A stretch of DNA of 24,747 bases from a virus. The stretch spans positions 1 through 24,747 of IMG/VR virus record IMGVR_UViG_3300009164_000341; one strand, 5' to 3'. Below are positions 5,399-20,279 of the stretch, one piece after another. Position numbers and translations under genes: made by a program. Under the pieces are notes generated by a model. That model saw only the letters and a list, made by a program, of their open reading frames with translations. It was not told the DNA's origin and made no database searches. The stretch's first letter is position 1; the number at the start of each line of letters is the position of its first letter.

Positions 5399-6472
5399 AT
5401 GGCTAATGTAACTATTTTTGCTGGCGAGTATCGTGGCACTAAAGTTCGTAACGAGACATTCCGTTTAGTATCAGATGTTAAGTCCGGTAGCAAAGGTATG
5501 TTTGTAACAGTAGTAGATGACGGCACTCTGGGCTATAAAGGCAAAAGTGTTCGTGTTAAAATTAAAAGCATGGAGGATATTACAGTGAGTGGTCAAAATA
5601 TTGCAGATATGTCGGACAGTCAACGTCGCAAAGCAAATAAAGATGACAATGTGTTTTCATTGATGGTTACTAAAGAACCAGAAGTGTTTACAGAAACAGA
5701 TGAGCAAGCCATCGAGCGCATTCGTGAGCGTTTTGATATTCTGGATCAAATGGCAGAAGGCACCACAACAGGTGCAGTTCGCGCTATGATTGTTAGTGGT
5801 CCTCCAGGCGTAGGTAAATCCTTTGGTGTTGAGAAGGTACTCGAGCAGGCCAGTTTGTTTGACAAGATGGCTCAGCGTAAGAACCGTTTTGAAGTTGTTA
5901 AAGGTGCAATGAGTGCTCTAGGCCTGTATGCTAAACTTTACAAGTTCTCAGACGAAGGTAACGTGTTAGTGTTTGACGACTGTGACAGCATCTTGCTTGA
6001 CGACTTGTCATTGAACATTTTGAAAGCCGCATTAGACAGTTCTAAGAAACGTTATATTTCCTGGAACACTGACAGTTCAATGTTGGGACGTGAAGGCATT
6101 CCAGATCGTTTTGAATTTAAAGGTAGTGTGATTTTTATCACTAACATTAAGTTTGAGCACGTTCGCAGTAAAAAATTAAAAGACCATTTGGACGCATTGG
6201 AAAGCCGTTGCCACTATTTGGATTTGACAATGGACACACAACGTGACAAGTTCTTGCGTATTACGCAGATTGTACGTGACGGTATGTTGGATAGTTATGA
6301 TTTTGAAGATGGAGCCGCACAAGAGATCGTAGACTACATGTGGGAAATGAAAAGCCGTTTGCGTGAACTGAGCTTGCGTACAGTACTAAAGATTGCAGAC
6401 CTGCGTAAGATGAGCGCACATAATTGGAAACGTCTTGCAGAGACAACAATTTTGAAACGTGCGGAAGTGTGA
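5399..6472 (+). CDS. AAA+ ATPase, role unknown
   Basis: A 357-residue protein with two parts. Residues 1-65 look like a small beta-rich domain (MANVTIFAGEYRGTKVR to VRVKIKSMEDI). From about 105 there is a complete AAA+ module: Walker A GPPGVGKS at 134-141, Walker B VLVFDDCD at 189-196, sensor-1 FITN at 246-249 and a candidate arginine finger in LESR at 267-270. The Walker B second acidic residue is Asp rather than Glu. It is probably a hexameric motor or remodelling ATPase acting on DNA or protein in the cytoplasm; the partner is unknown. It is not obviously the gp44 clamp-loader subunit. It has its own early promoter and an AGGAG Shine-Dalgarno at 5388-5392. Confidence 0.85.
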   Translation: MANVTIFAGEYRGTKVRNETFRLVSDVKSGSKGMFVTVVDDGTLGYKGKSVRVKIKSMEDITVSGQNIADMSDSQRRKANKDDNVFSLMVTKEPEVFTETDEQAIERIRERFDILDQMAEGTTTGAVRAMIVSGPPGVGKSFGVEKVLEQASLFDKMAQRKNRFEVVKGAMSALGLYAKLYKFSDEGNVLVFDDCDSILLDDLSLNILKAALDSSKKRYISWNTDSSMLGREGIPDRFEFKGSVIFITNIKFEHVRSKKLKDHLDALESRCHYLDLTMDTQRDKFLRITQIVRDGMLDSYDFEDGAAQEIVDYMWEMKSRLRELSLRTVLKIADLRKMSAHNWKRLAETTILKRAEV

Positions 6473-6553: not shown

Positions 6554-8692
6554 ATGAAATTCAAACCCACTCTCGTAGCAGTAGCAGTTTCTACTTTAGC
6601 ATTAAGTGTGCAGGCACAGGTATTTGCTAATAAAGAAGCAGAAACACAAACTAAATTTTTGTCAGACATTGGCGTTACACGAGATATTGTCGATGGCAAA
6701 GTTCAATCTTTGCGGCCCGGCCAGGTATTTGGAGGAGCATGGGGACGCGGTATCACAGGCAAAGGTGTTATCATTGGCATTGTTGACAATGGCTTTGATA
6801 TCAATCACAGCGATATCAAAGGTAAAGTGATTAGTCTAACTAACACAGGCACAACTGCTCTGGCAGTTGGCGTCCATGGCACTCAAATGGCCAGTATAGC
6901 CGCTGGCAAGTTAGATGGTTGGGGTACAGTTGGTGTGGCACCGGATGCTCAACTGGTGTTGTTCCAAGCAAATAGTTCTATCAGTTCATCCAATGGCTTG
7001 AGTGGTACTGGCATTAATATGAGTGCAGTAATTAAAGGTATGACATTGGCAGAACAAGCAGGTGCCACTGTTATCAATCTTAGCTTAGGTTCAAACTTTG
7101 ATCCTACATTCCAAAAAACTACAGTAGAAGTTAGCCCTGGAATCTTTAGAGCTCCGGATAATTACAATGATAAATTAACAGGCGGCAAAAGTTATTTGTA
7201 TAGTAACTCAATGAAAGATGTGGCTGCCTTTGCTAACGCAACATCTAAGTCTGTTATTGTAGTGTCGTCAGGTAACGCAGGCACAAAATACGCACAGATG
7301 CCAGCGGCATTTGTGACACAGACAGATGCCAACGGCAACTTGCTCATGGGCGGCCGTGCGCTGATTGTTGGCAACGTGGTTGGTGATGGCAAAGGTGGTT
7401 GGGTCATGAACACTGGTAGCAACCAAGCTGGCACCTTGTGTAATAGTTTTACTGGCAATGTCTGTAATGACAAATACTATGTCAAAGACTTTTATGTGGT
7501 GGCGCCGGGTACAGGTATGTGGGGAGCAGTTCCAGACGCAGGTAGAACTGCCGCGGCAATTAAAGCAGACGGCACCAACGGCGTTGGCGGCACAACAGGC
7601 ACAAGTCCTGCGGCCGCAGTGGTTAGTGGCGGTATTGCACTACTCAAACAAGCATGGCCACAACTGAGTTCGGCACAGATGGTTCAGTTAGTTAAAACAA
7701 CTGCCACTGACATGGGCGCCAAAGGTGTAGACGAAGTTTATGGCTGGGGCATGGTTAATTTTGACAAGGCCACATTGCCACAGGGTCTGCTTACTATTGC
7801 CAACTTTAAAGGTTATAATACAGCTATTCCATTAACTGCCTCAGGTGTTGCGTCTAGTGGTAGTGCTAGTCTTAAGACCAGTAGTGTGCTACAGAATGTT
7901 CAAGGCTTGGACAGTTATAATCGCAACTATACCCTGGACATGACTAGGGCAGTGGTAGCTAATCCAGTGGCAACTTATAGAGCTTCTAGTTCTTATTTGG
8001 CGCTGAGTCCAGCTAACTACAGTGAAGCATCTGTGCCAGTAAACGAAAACTACAGCATTAAGATGATGCAAAGTTTGGGTGGCTTTGCCAGCGAGGTTGC
8101 TTATACTGAACAAGGTGCTAGTTATAGTGTACAATATGGTAGCATGACAGAGAAGTCGGGTTTCCTGGGTAACTACGGCGCAGGCGCAATGGCGTTTGGT
8201 GACAGTAGTACAAGTTATTTGCAACTTGGTACCGAACATAAGTTTGGTGATGTTCAAGTATTTGGTAGCATGGGTTTTGGTGTTACTCGAACAGGAAGTG
8301 TGGCAGATTCAATGATCCAACTTGGTAATCGTATTAGTAGCCAGACTTGGAAACTAGGTGTTGCTAAGAACAATGTTTTCCAAAACAAAGACGCATTGAG
8401 CTTATCTGTTATTAGTCCTGTAAGTGTGCGTAATGGTACTGCTACAGTAACAGGCGTAACCGGCTATGAGTTTACAGACAACGGTGACGGCGCAGATGCT
8501 CGGGCTATTGTTAGCACAGAGACTATTAGTCTGCGAGCTCAAGTTAAGCCCATGGACTTGGTACTAGGTTATACTGTAATCGGCAAAGGCTATGACCGAG
8601 TTAACGTAAATGTGGCACGCCAATTTAATGTAGGCGGCGTCGTAGGCAATACAGCTAACAGCATTGGTGTACTGGCAGTCAAATCTTTTTAA
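6554..8692 (+). CDS. Secreted S8 (subtilisin) serine protease with autotransporter-like C-terminus
   Basis: A 712-residue protein. Residues 1-22 form a Sec signal peptide (MKFKP, hydrophobic core VAVAVSTLALS, cleavage near VQA-Q). The peptidase domain has all catalytic residues: Asp78 in IVDNG, His108 in HGTQMA, oxyanion Asn241 in SSGNAG and Ser351 in GTSPAAA. Beyond about residue 410 the protein is Ser/Thr/Gly-rich with alternating beta strands and ends in VLAVKSF, a terminal Phe as in outer-membrane barrel proteins. The segment ALSLSVISPVSVRNGTATVT resembles the C-terminal region of proteobacterial S8 autotransporters. It probably acts in the periplasm or at the outer surface of the host. 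Two internal cysteines (C296, C304) could form a disulfide. Its presence in a T4-like genome is unusual; acquisition from a host is likely. The target is unknown. Confidence 0.9.
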   Translation: MKFKPTLVAVAVSTLALSVQAQVFANKEAETQTKFLSDIGVTRDIVDGKVQSLRPGQVFGGAWGRGITGKGVIIGIVDNGFDINHSDIKGKVISLTNTGTTALAVGVHGTQMASIAAGKLDGWGTVGVAPDAQLVLFQANSSISSSNGLSGTGINMSAVIKGMTLAEQAGATVINLSLGSNFDPTFQKTTVEVSPGIFRAPDNYNDKLTGGKSYLYSNSMKDVAAFANATSKSVIVVSSGNAGTKYAQMPAAFVTQTDANGNLLMGGRALIVGNVVGDGKGGWVMNTGSNQAGTLCNSFTGNVCNDKYYVKDFYVVAPGTGMWGAVPDAGRTAAAIKADGTNGVGGTTGTSPAAAVVSGGIALLKQAWPQLSSAQMVQLVKTTATDMGAKGVDEVYGWGMVNFDKATLPQGLLTIANFKGYNTAIPLTASGVASSGSASLKTSSVLQNVQGLDSYNRNYTLDMTRAVVANPVATYRASSSYLALSPANYSEASVPVNENYSIKMMQSLGGFASEVAYTEQGASYSVQYGSMTEKSGFLGNYGAGAMAFGDSSTSYLQLGTEHKFGDVQVFGSMGFGVTRTGSVADSMIQLGNRISSQTWKLGVAKNNVFQNKDALSLSVISPVSVRNGTATVTGVTGYEFTDNGDGADARAIVSTETISLRAQVKPMDLVLGYTVIGKGYDRVNVNVARQFNVGGVVGNTANSIGVLAVKSF

Positions 8693-8704
8693 TAGGAGAT
8701 TAAA

Positions 8705-8872
8705 ATGTCCGAACCAATAGAACTTTATTGTACACAAGGAGATGAGGGACAATGGTTAGTTTGGTTCCCTCATCCACTTGGTGGTAAAAGTGTGCTAGAA
8801 GAGTTTGATAATGAGAAAGACGCCAGGGAATTCTGGCAGGATCAAATTGATAATGCTGATTATTCTGATTGA
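8705..8872 (+). CDS. Acidic 55-residue protein downstream of the protease
   Basis: A short open frame with ATG at 8705, a good AGGAG Shine-Dalgarno at 8693-8697 and stop TGA at 8870-8872. It begins MSEPIELYCTQGDEGQWLVW, is rich in Asp, Glu and Trp, has a single cysteine and has no signal peptide, so it is probably cytoplasmic. It starts only 12 bases after the protease stop, so the two share a transcript. No family is recognised. It could be an unrelated small early gene or a partner of the protease. The stop codon overlaps the -35 of the next promoter, the same compact stop/promoter arrangement as the other early genes. Confidence 0.7.
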   Translation: MSEPIELYCTQGDEGQWLVWFPHPLGGKSVLEEFDNEKDAREFWQDQIDNADYSD

Positions 8873-8897
8873 CTCTAATTAGTTGTCTTGTTATAAT
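8869..8897 (+). promoter_or_regulatory. Promoter of the restriction endonuclease-like gene
   Basis: TTGACT at 8869-8874 and TATAAT at 8892-8897 with a 17-base spacer. It overlaps the stop codon of the 55-residue gene. The predicted transcript starts near 8904; the leader to the ATG at 8926 has no clear Shine-Dalgarno. Confidence 0.8.
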
Positions 8898-8925
8898 ACA
8901 TATTTTAAAATAAACGAAATCGAAC

Positions 8926-9696
8926 ATGTCATTACAATTACATTCTGCTTTAGCACAGATTATTAAGATGCCTTATTTCAGGAACGAGGCATCGAGATCA
9001 GCTAAGACAAAACATGGCCACGAAGATGCAATAGCAAAAGTTCTAGAAGATAATGGCTTCACATCTAATGTTGAAAAACTACCTAAGTTTAAAAAAGAAT
9101 TTTTAAATGAATGGGAAAAGATAAATTTTCAACCTGTTGATTTCTTAGAAGAAAAAACAGACAAAGAATATAAACTAAAAAGCATGAAATGGCAAACCAA
9201 AAGATTTAAACACATGAAGCCTGGTACTTATATACAACAGCCCTGCGGTACTCATAGTTTTCCCGATTTCTTAATAAGAGATTTTGATGGTCGTTTCATT
9301 GTTTTAGAAGCTAAGAGTGGAAAAAAACAAGACGGTAAAGCTCAAAATGATGAAGCTACTACAGGGGCACCTATGTGGAATGATAACCTGCCTAAACATG
9401 GTGCTATATATGTTTACAGTAATGAAAAAAACAACAAGACAACAGTAGCATTAGGGCAGGATGTAATTGATAAAGAAGTCATTAAATTACGCGATGATTA
9501 TGATGCTGAGCAAAAATTACTCGATCAAAAATACAAAAAATTAGTAGATGAAGCAGACAAGAAAAATAGGGGGTGGAGGACTAAAGTTAGGCCTCAGAAT
9601 TTTCAAGGAGGTGGTATGGAAAAGTCAGATTGGTTCAAACATGCAGATCGCCAACCTTGCGAAGACAATGTCTTAAAATTTGCTTTAGCACAATAA
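8926..9696 (+). CDS. PD-(D/E)xK nuclease, probable type II restriction endonuclease
   Basis: A 256-residue protein with a recognisable restriction-nuclease core. SFPDFLIRDFDGRFIVLEAK gives Pro113-Asp114 and Glu128-Ala-Lys130, the PD...ExK metal-binding motif on two strands of a hairpin. An upstream helix, KHGHEDAIAKVLEDNGF, supplies a Glu (residue 33) of the kind often completing the site. QPCGTHSFPD resembles the PxGxxxxPD approach found in several type II enzymes. The C-terminal third is charged and probably coiled (residues about 180-225). The gene is followed after 8 bases by a DNA methyltransferase, the arrangement expected for a restriction-modification pair. The recognition sequence cannot be read from the protein. 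A homing or DNA-repair nuclease is the main alternative. Confidence 0.75.
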   Translation: MSLQLHSALAQIIKMPYFRNEASRSAKTKHGHEDAIAKVLEDNGFTSNVEKLPKFKKEFLNEWEKINFQPVDFLEEKTDKEYKLKSMKWQTKRFKHMKPGTYIQQPCGTHSFPDFLIRDFDGRFIVLEAKSGKKQDGKAQNDEATTGAPMWNDNLPKHGAIYVYSNEKNNKTTVALGQDVIDKEVIKLRDDYDAEQKLLDQKYKKLVDEADKKNRGWRTKVRPQNFQGGGMEKSDWFKHADRQPCEDNVLKFALAQ

Positions 9697-9699
9697 ATA
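9692..9699 (+). promoter_or_regulatory. Late-promoter-like element directly before the methyltransferase
   Basis: AATAAATA overlaps the endonuclease stop codon and ends five bases before the methyltransferase ATG, the same geometry as at 246-253 and 18500-18507. No Shine-Dalgarno is visible before that ATG. It could be chance in an AT-rich sequence. Confidence 0.35.
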
Positions 9700-9704
9700 T
9701 TGCC

Positions 9705-10598
9705 ATGAACACACATACTTTAATTTGCTCAGACAACGTGTCTGCAATGAAACAGCTTCCTGATAATTCTATAGATGCTTGTATTACAGATCCTCCATAT
9801 GGAATGGAAATTGCCGGAGTAGGTTGGGATCACAATGTTCCTCCAGTTGACACTTGGAAAGAAGTTTATCGTGTTTTAAAACCAGGTGCCTTTGTTCTTT
9901 CATTCTGTGCTCCTGAGTTCTATCATAGAATGGCCGTGGCAGTAGAAGATGCTGGCTTTTTGCCCAAGGATATGGTAGTGTGGATGGTAACAACAAAGAT
10001 GGCTAAACACAATAGAATGAAGCCAGCACATGAACCTATCTTTGTAGCACAGAAACCTTTAGAAGGTACGATAGAAAAGAATGTTGAGAAGTGGGGCTGT
10101 GGTAAAATTAATACAACCACTACTCGTGTACCATGGGATGGCAAGCCACCTACAGGTTGGATTAAAGGCGGAACACAACGCAGAGCATTTGGTGGAGATG
10201 TCGCTAAAGTAGACAAAGCATCTAAGGAAACAGAAGATGCTAATCCAAATGGCAGATATCCTAGCAATATTATTGGTCACTTTGATGAACCCGAGCATCA
10301 AAAATATTTCTATGCTCCCAGAGCTACACGCAAAGAGCGAGGAGAATATAATGATCATCCAACTCCTAAGCCTATTTCTTTAATGCGTTACTTGTGCAGA
10401 GTATACGCACCTAAGGGTGGTCTAGTATTAGATCCTTTCTTAGGTTCTGGATCTACTGGCATTGGTGCTTTACAAGAAGGTTGCGACTTTATCGGTATCG
10501 ATATGAGTGACCATTATGTTGATATTGCTACACGTAGAATTAAAGATCATTATGAAAGTCAAGAAGTTGTTGACAAACTTTTTGAATACGAATCTTAA
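9705..10598 (+). CDS. DNA methyltransferase, beta-type, probably N6-adenine
   Basis: A 297-residue S-adenosylmethionine-dependent DNA methyltransferase. Motif IV is DPPY at residues 29-32, near the N-terminus. The target-recognition region lies between about 100 and 215 (basic, with GKPPTGWIKGG and GRYPSNIIG). HPTPKP follows at 218-223, and motif I DPFLGSGSTG is at 243-252. The order catalytic motif, recognition domain, cofactor motif defines the beta class. DPPY rather than SPPY points to adenine. The longer open frame begins upstream inside the endonuclease gene, but the ATG at 9705 is the natural start, eight bases after the endonuclease stop. It probably protects phage DNA from the neighbouring nuclease or from host enzymes. 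Confidence 0.9.
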   Translation: MNTHTLICSDNVSAMKQLPDNSIDACITDPPYGMEIAGVGWDHNVPPVDTWKEVYRVLKPGAFVLSFCAPEFYHRMAVAVEDAGFLPKDMVVWMVTTKMAKHNRMKPAHEPIFVAQKPLEGTIEKNVEKWGCGKINTTTTRVPWDGKPPTGWIKGGTQRRAFGGDVAKVDKASKETEDANPNGRYPSNIIGHFDEPEHQKYFYAPRATRKERGEYNDHPTPKPISLMRYLCRVYAPKGGLVLDPFLGSGSTGIGALQEGCDFIGIDMSDHYVDIATRRIKDHYESQEVVDKLFEYES

Positions 10599-10609
10599 TT
10601 GGTAAGATT
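10591..10609 (+). terminator. Weak hairpin at the end of the methyltransferase gene
   Basis: AATCTTA at 10591-10597 pairs with TAAGATT at 10603-10609 around a five-base loop that follows the stop codon. The next bases, GCTTTATAAA, are not a clean T-run, so termination here is uncertain. Confidence 0.3.
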
Positions 10610-10624
10610 GCTTTATAAAATCTA

Positions 10625-10653
10625 TTGACAAGTATATATAATAATGTTATAGT
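10625..10653 (+). promoter_or_regulatory. Promoter of the GHKL ATPase gene
   Basis: TTGACA at 10625-10630 and TATAGT at 10648-10653 with a 17-base spacer. The -10 lies inside the left arm of the palindrome at 10645-10668. The predicted start is near 10660, leaving a leader of about 70 bases. Confidence 0.7.
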
Positions 10654-10668
10654 ATTGCTACTATAACA
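10645..10668 (+). promoter_or_regulatory. Perfect 10-bp palindromic operator over the -10 region
   Basis: TGTTATAGTA at 10645-10654 and TACTATAACA at 10659-10668 are exact reverse complements separated by TTGC. The repeat covers the -10 element and the predicted transcription start, the classic place for a repressor dimer. No obvious repressor gene is present in the module, so the regulator would be encoded elsewhere or by the host. A hairpin in RNA from upstream is the alternative. Confidence 0.65.
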
Positions 10669-10731
10669 AATAGTACCTAAACGTTTGCCTACAATAGTGA
10701 GGCTTGTTTAAAACATATAATGGAGAATATT

Positions 10732-12732
10732 ATGAAGCAATACACTGATTGCAGTTTCGTCAACACATCTGCAGAATTTGATAAAAAGTTGGCACAAGCA
10801 CCTGGGAATAAATTTCCCAGAGAAGCAATTCAAAATGGTATCGAAGCATACCTTTGTTCACAAAAAACTTTTCCTGACAAGAAAATATCTATTTTTAGAG
10901 TAAATCCTGATTACTTCTTTCCTTTTAGTGAAGCACTAAGAGCAGAAGGCTTTGATCAGCAATTATGTGCGAAGTTAGCATATCATAATTTCGGCGACGG
11001 AATGGATGCTAAAAAATTACGAAATATTTTAAATGGGGCCAGTAGCGGCGAAGAAAAGAAAATGGCTACTACAGACAATCACGGCGAGGGTGCGACCATT
11101 ACTGGACTAGCTTCTAATCAAGGAATGGGAACAGTATGGATTAGTTGCAGGGATGGTAAAGTTAGTCTGGCATGGTTACGAGTTTATCGAAATATAGAAG
11201 GATTGCGTGTTCCTGCTAAGTATAATTTCTTTGATGACGCTAAGGCCGCAAGAGCAAATTCTGGATTTGAAGATATCATTGATATTACAAATTTACCTTG
11301 TTTTAAGAAAGAAATGCTTGCCCATGATCATAACACTTTATTAGATACATCATCAGATTGGACTCTAGTTATTGCTATGGGAGATAATCCTGGACAAAAC
11401 ACAGCCGAACGTCCTTATAAAAGCGATGTTAAAGAATCCGGAGGATGGTTACAAAAAGATATAGTAAATCGATATTTTAGATTCCCGCCAGAAATTTCTG
11501 TTCGTATTATGGGAGGCTGTGGCCAAAATAGATTGCCTAATTCCTATTTCACAGTTAAATCATACGAAGAAGAAATAAATGATGCTATAAACGATGATAT
11601 AACAAAGAATACAGGTTTTAAATTTGAGTGGATCACAGACGATGATACTGGTACTAGAATAGGTTATATGTATGAACCCGATTCAGAAGGCACTAAAGGA
11701 AGACGAATTCTTGCTGTAGGCAAAGGAAATCCGTCATATTCTGCTATCATTTATAAAGACGAATGTTATAGCACTAAATCTGATACAAGGGATCACGCAT
11801 CTTGGAAATCAGTAGCGCCAGCTTGCGGTATAACGGTTAGTAATGAGAATTTTAAAATTCTTGTCGAGCTTCGTAGTAGTAAAGATATTGTTCCTAGCGG
11901 CTGGAGAAAAGATATTACATTCGAAAGCGATCCTGGTCGTACTTCAATTGATTTTGCTACTAGTTTAGCATCTGGAGAACGTATATGTGATATGGTAAAA
12001 CGTTTAATGCCTGAATGGGTTAAAGATAAATTAAAAGAATTAGATAACAGTTTAGTTGACAATTCTAATAGACAAGCTGATTTCCAAAAGAAGTTAGAAG
12101 AAATGCTTAAACCACAAAAGGCCGAAGCCGGTAATATATTCGGAACATTATTCGGCGGAGGAGCTGGAAGTGGAAAAGGCGGAGGTAAAGGATCGAAAAA
12201 TGGTGACGGCAATGGAAGTGGTAATGGTAACGGATCTGGCGGAACTGGAAGAAAGCGTCGACCTTTTTCTTGGCAAACCGGACAAGAAGTAACAGTTGCT
12301 CCGCAGTTTCCTATTATTAAAACAGTAGTAGATGAAATCGAATGGGAAACCAAAGGCGGCACTTATGACTTAGAAAATAAAGCCGCATGGTATGATATTG
12401 AAAATGAAATTCTTTGGATCAATGGTTTATATGATGTAGTAGAAAGACATTCGTCTATGTTGTTAGAAAAGTATCCATCAGATTCTTCGTCTATAGAAGA
12501 CTCAGCCAGATCCTTAGCTCGTTCTGCTATGGAAGATCGAATTTGTTGGCACATACTAAACGGACTTGCTAAAAAAGCAATATCTTCTGGTTGGAATACT
12601 GATAGTATTAACGAGTCATGGACCCCTTCAGCACTAACAGTAGGCGCCGCAGATATTATATATGCGAATGCCGATGAGTATTATACTAAGATGAGAGAAG
12701 AACGAACTAAATTAGAAAATAAAGTTTATTGA
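10732..12732 (+). CDS. GHKL (Hsp90/MutL/MORC-type) ATPase next to the restriction-modification pair
   Basis: A 666-residue protein with an N-terminal GHKL ATP-binding fold. The N-box helix is REAIQNGIEA (Glu31, Asn35), the G1 box is NFGDGM at residues 86-91, and the G2 region is NHGEGATITGL at 116-126. The usual aspartate starting the G1 box is Asn86. The middle part (about 190-415) has no recognised motif. A short coiled stretch (about 420-460) leads to a Gly/Ser/Lys/Asn-rich flexible linker (about 474-508) with a basic end (RKRR). The last 155 residues are a helical domain of unknown type. GHKL ATPases of the MutL/MORC kind occur beside bacterial restriction-modification genes, which fits this neighbourhood. 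I prefer ATG 10732, preceded by GGAG at 10722-10725, over ATG 10720. A strong terminator follows. Confidence 0.75.
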   Translation: MKQYTDCSFVNTSAEFDKKLAQAPGNKFPREAIQNGIEAYLCSQKTFPDKKISIFRVNPDYFFPFSEALRAEGFDQQLCAKLAYHNFGDGMDAKKLRNILNGASSGEEKKMATTDNHGEGATITGLASNQGMGTVWISCRDGKVSLAWLRVYRNIEGLRVPAKYNFFDDAKAARANSGFEDIIDITNLPCFKKEMLAHDHNTLLDTSSDWTLVIAMGDNPGQNTAERPYKSDVKESGGWLQKDIVNRYFRFPPEISVRIMGGCGQNRLPNSYFTVKSYEEEINDAINDDITKNTGFKFEWITDDDTGTRIGYMYEPDSEGTKGRRILAVGKGNPSYSAIIYKDECYSTKSDTRDHASWKSVAPACGITVSNENFKILVELRSSKDIVPSGWRKDITFESDPGRTSIDFATSLASGERICDMVKRLMPEWVKDKLKELDNSLVDNSNRQADFQKKLEEMLKPQKAEAGNIFGTLFGGGAGSGKGGGKGSKNGDGNGSGNGNGSGGTGRKRRPFSWQTGQEVTVAPQFPIIKTVVDEIEWETKGGTYDLENKAAWYDIENEILWINGLYDVVERHSSMLLEKYPSDSSSIEDSARSLARSAMEDRICWHILNGLAKKAISSGWNTDSINESWTPSALTVGAADIIYANADEYYTKMREERTKLENKVY

Positions 12733-12742
12733 GCAAATTAGT

Positions 12743-12780
12743 AAAAATCCTAGACTAAACATCTAGGATTTTTTATTTTA
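12743..12780 (+). terminator. Strong intrinsic terminator closing the cargo module
   Basis: AAAAATCCTAGA at 12743-12754 pairs perfectly over 12 bases with TCTAGGATTTTT at 12762-12773, loop CTAAACA, followed by a T-rich run. Because both flanks are A/T runs, it may work in both directions. Confidence 0.9.
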
Positions 12781-18104: not shown

Positions 18105-18460
18105 ACTAGTTGTATTTGACGACGTTTGATTCGTTTTGTAATGATATTTTGAAGACTAACTGCTTCGCCGTGCAGTATTTCAAAATCTTTAACATTATAC
18201 GTGCGTAAACTATAACTGAATTTCTTAAATTTTGGCCCTATGACTAAATTTATGGGCAATGAGCGATTGCTTTGCCACCACCATTCATCGCCCAATTCTA
18301 GAAATTCTTGCTTGTCTTCGGTACATGTAAGCACATTATAGACATATATGCTGGCCAGAGTATTGGTATAATTTTGAATAATTCCTAGAATTTCTTCCTC
18401 CCCCATTCTACATAGACTCAAGAAAGGGAATTTTTCTAATATATCGTTGTAATCTGCCAT
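18092..18460 (-). CDS. Minus-strand phage protein, unknown function
   Basis: A 122-residue soluble protein (MADYNDILEKFPFLSLCRMG at the start) with several aromatic residues (EWWWQSN) and a basic end (TKRIKRRQIQ). It converges on the DnaE-like gene, and the 3' ends overlap by 13 bases. It fills an otherwise empty interval, and an element GCTAAATA on the same strand ends six bases upstream of its ATG. These two facts make it more than a chance frame. No Shine-Dalgarno is seen. No family is recognised. It is divergent from the gene at 18513. Confidence 0.7.
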   Translation of the reverse strand: MADYNDILEKFPFLSLCRMGEEEILGIIQNYTNTLASIYVYNVLTCTEDKQEFLELGDEWWWQSNRSLPINLVIGPKFKKFSYSLRTYNVKDFEILHGEAVSLQNIITKRIKRRQIQLVQKL

Positions 18461-18466
18461 CGGTAA

Positions 18467-18474
18467 TATTTAGC
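18467..18474 (-). promoter_or_regulatory. Late-promoter-like element for the minus-strand gene
   Basis: Read on the minus strand this is GCTAAATA, ending six bases before the ATG at 18460. A start at T4 spacing would give a leader of about one base. Confidence 0.4.
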
Positions 18475-18499
18475 ACCGAATTCATTTCAATTAAAATTA

Positions 18500-18507
18500 A
18501 ATAAATA
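18500..18507 (+). promoter_or_regulatory. Late-promoter-like element for the structural-type gene
   Basis: AATAAATA ends five bases before the ATG at 18513, and no Shine-Dalgarno is present. It forms a divergent pair with the element at 18467-18474 in a 52-base intergenic space. Confidence 0.5.
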
Positions 18508-18512
18508 CAACT

Positions 18513-19295
18513 ATGAGCGACACATTTACATTATTAAGCTATCCGCAACGCAGTATACTAATATATGCCGAAGGACATAGCAGGACACAAAACATGCCAT
18601 TCAATACTACAAGAAAAACTATCTATAAGGGAGTGGATAGCACCCTGGGATTTGATGTTAAAAACCAAGACCGTAAGCCAGTTAATTTACTGGGAAAAGA
18701 TATTATGGTTAACATCATGCAAGTTAGAACTGGAGAACTTGTAGTTCAACGTAGAGCAGTGGCTGTAGAGCCAGAATCTGGATTTTGTGAGTTCACTGTT
18801 TTCAGCAGTGACCTGGTTGATTTGGATACAGGTATATATCAATTAAGTGCAGTGGTCTATGAAGCAGACGGCCGCGCAAAAAGCTTGTATACAGATCACA
18901 ATCGCAGAGTTACTTTGGAGTTAGAAGTAAGTGACGGAGCATATCCAAAATATTTACCAAGTGTAGGTCTAACATTTACACAACTAGGTAGCACTTGGAT
19001 TAGTCAACCTATCCCTAGTAACTTACAAAAGAATGATAGTAGTACATTGCATACTATACAAATTGGTGTCACCAATTACACCGGTACAGTTGAAGCACTA
19101 GTTAGTTTAGAATACGATAGTGGCGGGAACTATTTTCCAGTTAAATTTGTCAATGATAAATTCCAAATTCAGTTTGATGGCATAACAGACATTCAGGGTT
19201 GGAACTTTATAACAGATGCTCGCTGGGTGAAGATATTATATACTCCGGATAGCAATAACGCCGGAACAGTTGACAAAATACTTTACAGAAGTTAA
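18513..19295 (+). CDS. Probable virion structural protein, beta-rich
   Basis: A 260-residue protein built almost entirely of beta-type segments. The first half (FDVKNQDRKPVNLLGKDIMV to LELEVSDGAYPKY, about 45-150) resembles an Ig-like or baseplate-type beta sandwich: modified-chain phrases such as KPVNLLGKDI and TGIYQLSAVVYEADGRA are common in phage tail and baseplate proteins. The second half (about 155-258) looks like a second sandwich. There is no signal peptide. It has a late-type promoter element, which supports a virion role. The exact part of the particle is not known. The fold call is an impression from the strand pattern only. Confidence 0.65.
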   Translation: MSDTFTLLSYPQRSILIYAEGHSRTQNMPFNTTRKTIYKGVDSTLGFDVKNQDRKPVNLLGKDIMVNIMQVRTGELVVQRRAVAVEPESGFCEFTVFSSDLVDLDTGIYQLSAVVYEADGRAKSLYTDHNRRVTLELEVSDGAYPKYLPSVGLTFTQLGSTWISQPIPSNLQKNDSSTLHTIQIGVTNYTGTVEALVSLEYDSGGNYFPVKFVNDKFQIQFDGITDIQGWNFITDARWVKILYTPDSNNAGTVDKILYRS

Positions 19296-19307
19296 AATAG
19301 TAAGGTC

Positions 19308-20279
19308 ATGTCGGCCTTACAAACACTATTACAATCACGCATAAACGGTAGACCTAGCCCCAAGGGTTGGGTTAGCTTCAACTGTCCAATGTGCGTGGTA
19401 AATGGACAAAGTCGATTAGATACAAAACGTCGTGGTGGTATGATGTTTAATCCAGACGGAGCAGTTAGTTATCATTGCTTTAACTGTAATTTTAAAACAA
19501 GTTGGACACAGGGCAGAACACTGAGCTTTAAGATGCGTAAATTTATGCGTCAACTGGGTTTTGATGAAGCAGAAGTACAGCGTCTAAACTTAGAACTGCT
19601 AAGCCAAGCAGATGTAGAAACATTAGTACAACGTGAACCGGAACCAACATGGACTCCTAGTTGGCCTGACTACGATCTAGGATTTGAAGTAAGACCTTTA
19701 GACACTCCTGAGAAAATAGAATACCTACAACATAGACAAGTATATGATCTAGCAGTATGGTTAGAAACAGACACAACATACGCAGGATTAAACAATAGAG
19801 CTATACTGCCACTGACTTATGAAAATAGAATAGTAGGTTTTCAAAGTAGATACGTTGGAGAAATACCAGAGAAGTTTTCTAAGTATTATAAAAAAGCACC
19901 AGCAGACTATGTGTTTGGCCTAGACAACCAACGAGACAACAGACAGTTTGTTATCGTCACAGAAGGTGAGATGGATGCGTTACTGACCAGCGGGTTAAGT
20001 ATTGGCAGTAATAATTTAAGTGATAATCAAGCACAACTGATAGAAGACTTAAATATAGAGCCTATCGTGATTCCAGACGCAGATAAAGCAGGCAGAGACC
20101 TAGTAGAACGTGCCGCGGATTACGGGTGGAGTGTAAGTTTTCCTGAATGGGAGAACTGTAAAGACGTCAGTGACGCAGTAATGAAATATGGACGCTTGTT
20201 TGCTATTCACAGCATACTACAAGCCGCAGAACACAGTCCAACAAAAATTAGATTAATGGGAAAGAGATATTGTCAATGA
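19308..20279 (+). CDS. 61: DNA primase, gp61-like
   Basis: Primase makes the RNA primers for lagging-strand synthesis with the gp41 helicase. The 323-residue protein has an N-terminal zinc ribbon with Cys26-x2-Cys29 and Cys57-x2-Cys60 and the usual YHCFNCNFK turn. A central region with RAILPLTYENRIVGFQSRY is typical of TOPRIM primases. The TOPRIM motifs are VTEGEMDAL (Glu219) and PDADKAG (Asp257, Asp259). T4 gp61 has about 340 residues. The start codon at 19308 has AAGG only two bases upstream, a poor site, so translation may be weak. The stop overlaps the helicase ATG by four bases, so helicase and primase are coupled, as suits a complex acting together. Confidence 0.93.
   Translation: MSALQTLLQSRINGRPSPKGWVSFNCPMCVVNGQSRLDTKRRGGMMFNPDGAVSYHCFNCNFKTSWTQGRTLSFKMRKFMRQLGFDEAEVQRLNLELLSQADVETLVQREPEPTWTPSWPDYDLGFEVRPLDTPEKIEYLQHRQVYDLAVWLETDTTYAGLNNRAILPLTYENRIVGFQSRYVGEIPEKFSKYYKKAPADYVFGLDNQRDNRQFVIVTEGEMDALLTSGLSIGSNNLSDNQAQLIEDLNIEPIVIPDADKAGRDLVERAADYGWSVSFPEWENCKDVSDAVMKYGRLFAIHSILQAAEHSPTKIRLMGKRYCQ

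What the first reader, a model, noticed from the sequence alone, without database searches (positions are those of the whole stretch)
8869..12780. Phage-borne endonuclease, methyltransferase and GHKL ATPase module
Three genes in a row encode a PD-(D/E)xK nuclease (PD at residues 113-114, EAK at 128-130), a DPPY methyltransferase and a 666-residue GHKL ATPase. They are bounded by their own promoter and a 12-bp-stem terminator inside a T4-like replication region. MutL/MORC-type GHKL ATPases are known next to bacterial restriction-modification genes, but a complete three-part set as cargo of a T4-like phage would be a distinctive weapon against competing phages or host DNA. Linking the three into one system is inference from adjacency.
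Basis: partly seen in the sequence, partly recalled or inferred. Interest (0 to 1): 0.85.

Follow-up and report, generated by a model that had tools for sequence, protein, structure and literature searches.

The report
Phage restriction-modification pair beside separate ATPase
A large T4-like virus of bacteria carries its own small DNA-cutting and DNA-protecting enzyme pair, a recurring toolkit probably used against host or rival-phage DNA, and next to it lies an uncharacterised ATP-driven protein that on present evidence is a separate gene rather than a third part of the same weapon.

Summary
The three genes are real and the motifs are as described. Two of them form a unit. The nuclease (8926-9696) lies beside or one gene from a DNA methyltransferase in all 13 informative loci found (phages, cyanophages, a Helicobacter phage). 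Its PD...ExK residues are invariant in 13 homologues. This is most simply a phage-encoded, type II-like restriction-modification pair. The methyltransferase partner has been exchanged: the window nuclease's closest relative (58% identical, sister at 95/95 support) sits beside an unrelated TSPPY methyltransferase. No recognition site or activity could be tested.

The third gene (10732-12732) is a genuine GHKL/Bergerat ATPase by conserved motifs and fold comparison. It is separable: it has its own promoter with an operator-like palindrome. In its closest relative (51%) it lies 9 kb from the restriction pair. Its other phage relatives and two complete cyanophage genomes carry one element without the other. 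It belongs to an uncharacterised ATPase family, sparse in Alphaproteobacteria, sometimes beside Gabija or metallo-beta-lactamase genes, with Asn replacing the usual adenine-contacting Asp. T4 rIIA, MORC and Hsp90 are superfamily-level relatives only.

A three-part weapon is not supported, though not excluded. Interest is moderate.

The parts
8869..8897 (+). sigma-70-like promoter TTGACT-17-TATAAT before the nuclease
   Evidence: 11 of 12 matches, TG before the second hexamer; consensus match only
8926..9696 (+). PD-(D/E)xK endonuclease, 256 aa (PHROG 18119, unknown function)
   Evidence: P113, D114, E128, K130 invariant in 13 homologues
9705..10598 (+). beta-order DPPY amino-methyltransferase (probably m6A), 297 aa
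   Evidence: 8 bases after the nuclease stop; 75% identical homologue overlaps the nuclease gene in G001
10625..10653 (+). separate sigma-70-like promoter TTGACA-17-TATAGT for the ATPase
   Evidence: 11 of 12 matches
10645..10668 (.). operator-like perfect inverted repeat TGTTATAGTA-ttgc-TACTATAACA overlapping the -10 box
10732..12732 (+). GHKL/Bergerat-fold ATPase, 666 aa, uncharacterised family; accessory gene, probably not part of the restriction pair
12743..12773 (+). intrinsic terminator, 12-bp stem, 7-base loop, T-rich tail

Best explanation
Two independent cargo units lie side by side in a variable stretch of a T4-related, possibly jumbo, phage. Unit 1 (8869-10598) is a compact type II-like restriction-modification pair. 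The DPPY methyltransferase marks the phage's own DNA at a short site, probably as N6-methyladenine. The PD-(D/E)xK nuclease cuts the same site where unmarked: host chromosome, plasmids or a second phage. Shown: two genes, intact catalytic motifs, recurrent pairing. Inferred: shared site, activity and target. Unit 2 (10625-12773) is a separately promoted, probably repressor-controlled gene for a GHKL ATPase that should dimerise on ATP binding and act as an ATP-driven clamp on DNA or a partner protein. By its company in bacteria it is likely a conflict gene (counter-defence or exclusion), but its target is unknown.
For: Nuclease adjacent to, overlapping or one gene from a methyltransferase in 13 of 13 informative loci: window; G001; S-SKS1; S-CAM4 and AG-345-F15, one gene between; L009, L010, L011, L012, L033, L036, L038; Helicobacter phage. 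Catalytic residues invariant. Window nuclease and L009 nuclease are sisters (95/95) yet have non-homologous methyltransferases, so pairing with some methyltransferase is what is kept. ATPase separable: own promoter and palindrome; 9 kb away in G001; G002-G005 have the ATPase without the nuclease; S-SKS1, S-CAM4 and eight viral contigs have the nuclease without the ATPase. Fold search: MORC3/MORC2 best at 3.6e-5, then Hsp90, GyrB, MutL.
Against: No recognition site, cleavage or methylation was tested. The nuclease model is too poor (pLDDT 48) for a fold assignment and no PDB sequence matches it. The MTase is better conserved between window and G001 (74% of aligned codons) than the nuclease (44%), so the nuclease could be drifting in some lineages. 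All three genes do occur together in both phages with the closely related ATPase, so a functional link is not excluded. Most records are fragments.
Confidence: 0.7

Rival explanations
1. The three genes form one integrated system in which the GHKL ATPase loops or remodels DNA to license cleavage, as proposed for MORC/paraMORC-containing restriction systems.
For: Direct adjacency in the window; all three genes in G001 as well; Iyer 2008 (PMC2292703) describes MORC-type ATPases in restriction operons, a minority without helicase.
Against: Separate promoter; 9 kb and several genes apart in G001; no nuclease in G002-G005 and no ATPase in complete S-SKS1 and S-CAM4 or in the other nuclease contigs; none of the bacterial ATPase loci compared carries this nuclease family.
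Confidence: 0.12
2. The nuclease is a repair or mobile (Vsr-like or homing) enzyme and the methyltransferase is an orphan that only shields phage DNA.
For: Orphan methyltransferases are common in related phages (Melnitz gene 5, PMC9004378). The nuclease's fold is not confirmed. The pair is split by one unrelated gene in two cyanophages.
Against: Pairing with a methyltransferase in 13 of 13 loci, often with overlapping genes, and with three non-homologous methyltransferase types; Vsr nucleases accompany C5-cytosine methyltransferases (established knowledge), unlike here; no homing-type motif family matched.
Confidence: 0.13
3. The ATPase is a diverged counterpart of T4 rIIA, a GHKL protein listed among poorly understood counter-defence proteins of jumbo phages (PMC7824862), unrelated to restriction.
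For: GHKL N-terminus with variable C-terminus and T4-like context; profile comparison aligns the ATP-binding region with T4 rIIA (probability 72%, E 3.5e-5, 106 columns).
Against: Similarity is confined to the superfamily motifs; no PHROG named rIIA matches any of 15 members; the same profile also picks up HtpG/Hsp90 genes; the family continues into bacterial chromosomes and plasmids.
Confidence: 0.2
4. The ATPase is a chaperone-like or topology factor for phage replication.
For: Lies amid replication genes; gyrase B, Hsp90 and MutL are among the fold matches.
Against: Sits in curli and cyclase neighbourhoods in relatives, has no match in the 50,697 phage records searched, and is a sparse accessory gene in bacteria.
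Confidence: 0.1

Closest known systems
Chlorovirus virus-encoded restriction-modification pairs
   Same: Virus carries adjacent methyltransferase and site-specific endonuclease genes; endonuclease thought to degrade unprotected host DNA (PMC7019647)
   Different: Bacterial host here; sequence relation not tested; virion packaging and site unknown here
Marseillevirus GATC restriction-modification system
   Same: Virus-encoded neighbouring REase and MTase; REase not recognised by standard domain searches (PMC7253447)
   Different: There host DNA is not degraded; here the target is unknown
Mom-REase fusions of jumbo phages (PMC7824862)
   Same: Same predicted logic: modify own DNA, cut others'
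   Different: Momylation and fused domains there; separate amino-methyltransferase and nuclease here
Synechococcus phages S-SKS1, S-CAM4/ACG-2014j and marine virus AG-345-F15
   Same: Homologous nuclease (30-34%) and methyltransferase (53-63%), same order
   Different: Shorter nuclease (about 177 aa), one intervening gene in two of them, no ATPase
MORC/paraMORC ATPases of restriction operons (PMC2292703)
   Same: GHKL fold; top fold matches are MORC3 and MORC2
   Different: No helicase operon; Asn in place of the G1 Asp; C-terminal half unassigned
T4 rIIA
   Same: Phage GHKL protein with a divergent C-terminus
   Different: Only superfamily-level similarity

Membership tests
Type II restriction-modification system | Separate REase and MTase genes, closely linked | tested here: met
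   8 bases apart in window; linked in 13 of 13 informative loci
Type II restriction-modification system | Nuclease with intact catalytic motif | tested here: met
   PD-x13-ExK in the window; the P, D, E and K are invariant in 13 homologues; fold itself not confirmed
Type II restriction-modification system | DNA amino-methyltransferase with intact motifs I and IV | tested here: met
   N6_N4_Mtase 2.5e-34, PADLOC MTase_II 2.2e-39
Type II restriction-modification system | Both enzymes act on the same site and methylation blocks cleavage | not testable with these tools
   needs enzymes or long-read methylation data
PD-(D/E)xK superfamily | Core alpha-beta fold around PD...ExK | tested here: inconclusive
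   model pLDDT 48; the weak AvaII rows (E 1.9 and above) in Foldseek are not evidence
GHKL ATPase superfamily | Bergerat N, G1, G2 and G3 motifs and fold | tested here: met
   E31, N35, G88, G90, G118, G120, T211 invariant; Foldseek MORC3 3.6e-5, Hsp90, GyrB, MutL. The G1 Asp is Asn (position 86) in 14 of 15 aligned rows
MORC/paraMORC in restriction operons | Conserved operonic association with helicase, nuclease or methylase | tested here: not met
   adjacent in the window only; not adjacent in G001 and no nuclease of this family in G002-G005
MORC/paraMORC in restriction operons | Phylogenetic placement within the MORC/paraMORC clade | not tested
   no reference set assembled; the A2 profile finds no MORC sequence in the PDB
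T4 rIIA | Sequence relation beyond the ATP-binding motifs, or rIIA PHROG match | tested here: not met
Known or candidate defence systems in PADLOC 2.0.0 | Model match for the nuclease or the ATPase | tested here: not met
   none for the nuclease or any aligned ATPase member; the MTase matches generic MTase_II models

The most novel reading that the evidence does not exclude
The three genes are one system: an atypical GHKL ATPase with altered nucleotide recognition (Asn instead of Asp in the G1 box) controls a phage-borne restriction enzyme, for example holding cleavage until the phage genome is methylated or directing it to incoming DNA. Both phages with the close ATPase homologue do encode the pair.
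Probability: 0.12. Interest if true: 0.8.

Novelty: new member of a known kind. Interest (0 to 1): 0.45.

Why it matters
It documents an uncharacterised nuclease family that recurs in T4-like, cyanophage and Helicobacter-phage genomes always beside or close to a methyltransferase, of three non-homologous types. This is a testable example of phages carrying complete restriction-modification as a weapon rather than only orphan methyltransferases as a shield. It also defines an uncharacterised GHKL ATPase family shared by phages and alphaproteobacterial chromosomes and plasmids.

Tried and rejected
Pfam, NCBIfam, PHROGs and PADLOC on the ATPase and nuclease: no informative family. PDB sequence searches with the nuclease, A1 and A2: nothing useful. 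AlphaFold of the nuclease from 5 sequences: pLDDT 48, Foldseek meaningless. T4 rIIA and gp39 against a two-sequence profile: no match; with 15 sequences rIIA aligns only over the ATP site. The low-scoring genomic matches of the ATPase profile are at least partly HtpG: three of six inspected showed an Hsp90 N-terminus. IetA/IetS reading of the AAA+ plus subtilase genes upstream: AAA+ has no PADLOC match and the subtilase only a generic one. Nuclease in 399 Pseudomonadota genomes: one weak hit over 62 profile positions in an unrelated-looking frame, taken as chance. S-CAM4's gene between nuclease and methyltransferase is not the TSPPY methyltransferase.
Full report
WHAT IS THERE. The window is a 24,747-base viral contig with T4-like replication genes: gp32-like SSB, UvsX, a UvsW-type helicase, primase and a DnaB-like helicase. 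The DnaB-like helicase is closest to that of the jumbo phages PA5oct/Paride (48-53%) and Atu_ph07, so the phage may be of jumbo type. The nuclease has PD at 113-114 and EAK at 128-130, and the methyltransferase has DPPY and DPFxGSG. The ATPase start with the better ribosome-binding site is 10732 (666 aa). The promoter before the nuclease and the 12-bp-stem terminator after the ATPase are present. Promoter-like sites as a class are at chance frequency in this AT-rich stretch (15 found, 14.8 expected); these two are the best matches, each 11 of 12.

NUCLEASE AND METHYLTRANSFERASE FORM A PAIR. tblastn against 50,697 phage records returned ten with the nuclease. Nine are six entries of S-CAM4/ACG-2014j, two of S-SKS1 and AG-345-F15, and those same nine head the list for the methyltransferase at 53-63% identity. 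In S-SKS1 the two genes overlap; in S-CAM4 and AG-345-F15 one unrelated gene lies between them. In the Helicobacter phage the nuclease follows a different, NPPF-type methyltransferase. Viral contigs L009, L011, L012, L033, L036, L038 and the truncated L010 have the nuclease followed at once by a third, unrelated TSPPY methyltransferase. G001, the contig with the closest ATPase, has nuclease and DPPY methyltransferase overlapping by 8 bases, the methyltransferase 75% identical to the window's. That makes 13 of 13 informative distinct loci linked to a methyltransferase. A gene placed at random among about 200, with a few methyltransferases per genome, would be expected within one gene of one in only a few per cent of cases (my estimate, not computed). 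P113, D114, E128 and K130 are invariant in 13 homologues that share 25-58% identity with the window.

PARTNER EXCHANGE. In a nuclease tree the window and L009 are sisters (95/95 support), 58% identical, yet one is paired with a DPPY and the other with a TSPPY methyltransferase. The L009 contig has no DPPY methyltransferase match, and the window has no TSPPY one, though both are fragments. The nuclease therefore keeps a methyltransferase beside it while the methyltransferase itself is replaced. This is what selection for self-protection predicts, and it argues against a chance association. Whether the site changed with the partner is unknown. The deeper branches of this tree are unresolved.

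THE ATPASE IS A GENUINE BUT UNCHARACTERISED GHKL PROTEIN. Alone it matches no family. One phage relative at 51% (L001, on G001) opened the way to nine bacterial relatives in a genome scan, all Alphaproteobacteria where the record title names a group, six plasmid records and further phage relatives at about 28% or less (L026-L029). In the 15-row alignment E31, N35, G88, G90, G118, G120 and T211 are invariant and match the Bergerat boxes. A ten-sequence AlphaFold model (mean pLDDT 57, so only moderate) matches MORC3 (3.6e-5), MORC2, Hsp90, gyrase B and MutL. The Asp of the G1 box is Asn in 14 of 15 rows, the exception being the distant L030 (DNGVGM). In known GHKL enzymes that Asp contacts adenine (established knowledge); the consequence here is untested. 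About 6 of 385 sampled genomes of the class carry a homologue well above the background; the weaker hits there include HtpG.

THE ATPASE IS SEPARABLE FROM THE PAIR. G001 carries the ATPase at 18303-20249 and the pair at 7454-9095, about 9 kb apart. G002 (338 kb), G003, G004 and G005 carry the ATPase without the nuclease. Complete S-SKS1 and S-CAM4, the AG-345-F15 contig and eight nuclease-bearing viral contigs lack the ATPase. In L026-L028 the ATPase sits beside a CHASE2-type cyclase and near curli genes; in L001 a similar cyclase and a curli-like gene lie within a few kb (these neighbours were assigned by eye). In bacteria it is followed by GajA/GajB of Gabija in two plasmids (GajA and GajB models matched for L025; annotation and order similar in L023), by a metallo-beta-lactamase-fold gene in L020 (PADLOC candidate PDC-M48B, 1.2e-92) and weakly in L043, and preceded by a conserved 73-aa ORF in several. 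This company suggests a conflict role but is a handful of cases, not a statistic.

HOW IT PROBABLY WORKS. The methyltransferase marks phage DNA; the nuclease cuts unmarked copies of the site. Chloroviruses offer the closest functional parallel: adjacent virus-encoded pairs whose endonucleases are thought to degrade host DNA, and which were reported not to be responsible for exclusion of other viruses (PMC7019647). The marseillevirus pair does not degrade host DNA (PMC7253447), so the target must be tested, not assumed. The same logic has been predicted for Mom-REase proteins of jumbo phages (PMC7824862). The ATPase should dimerise and hydrolyse ATP like other GHKL proteins; its partner is unknown. 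Counter-defence of the kind suggested for rIIA (PMC7824862) is an analogy, since detectable sequence similarity to T4 rIIA does not extend beyond the ATP site.

VERDICT. Observation confirmed, with an extra promoter. Restriction-modification pair: well supported, activity untested. Three-part system: not supported but not excluded.

Noticed in passing
window 6554-8692: A 712-aa subtilase (Pfam Peptidase_S8 7.6e-30) with a signal-peptide-like start and a beta-barrel-like C-terminal half, resembling an autotransporter; no phage relative by tblastn. Barrel reading is by eye.
   Followed up: partly
window 5399-6472: AAA+ protein (phrog_1250) directly before the subtilase; the AAA+ plus S8 order recalls IetA/IetS defence, but PADLOC finds no match for the AAA+ protein.
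   Followed up: partly
L026 1-4000, L028 1049-4276, L001 637-1764: Curli-like genes (CsgF-, CsgG- and CsgA-like repeats) with a FecR-like gene close to the ATPase in related phages; CsgF/CsgG are known in pelagimyophages and Melnitz, which were reported to lack CsgA/CsgB, so the CsgA-like repeats may be new. Assigned by eye.
   Followed up: no
L001 2803-4851, L026 7865-9976, L028 8018-10069: CHASE2-like membrane protein with a C-terminal adenylate/guanylate-cyclase-like domain in phages, next to or near the ATPase (by eye).
   Followed up: no
L020 7661-8755, L043 3533-4684, L030 2-1147: Metallo-beta-lactamase-fold gene beside the GHKL ATPase relative in three separate loci; the L020 one matches PADLOC candidate PDC-M48B, the L030 one is by eye only.
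   Followed up: partly
L014 5584-5811, L017 5531-5809, L018 5691-5948, L019 5528-5809: Conserved 73-aa ORF immediately upstream of the bacterial ATPase gene, not found in the phage loci compared.
   Followed up: no
L004 6520-7473, L006 4503-5900: Different unrelated genes between nuclease and methyltransferase in cyanophages; the L006 one looks ParB-like by eye.
   Followed up: no
L011 2741-3976 and 5610-6878: Two further related methyltransferase-like genes (51% identical) flanking the nuclease-TSPPY pair.
   Followed up: no
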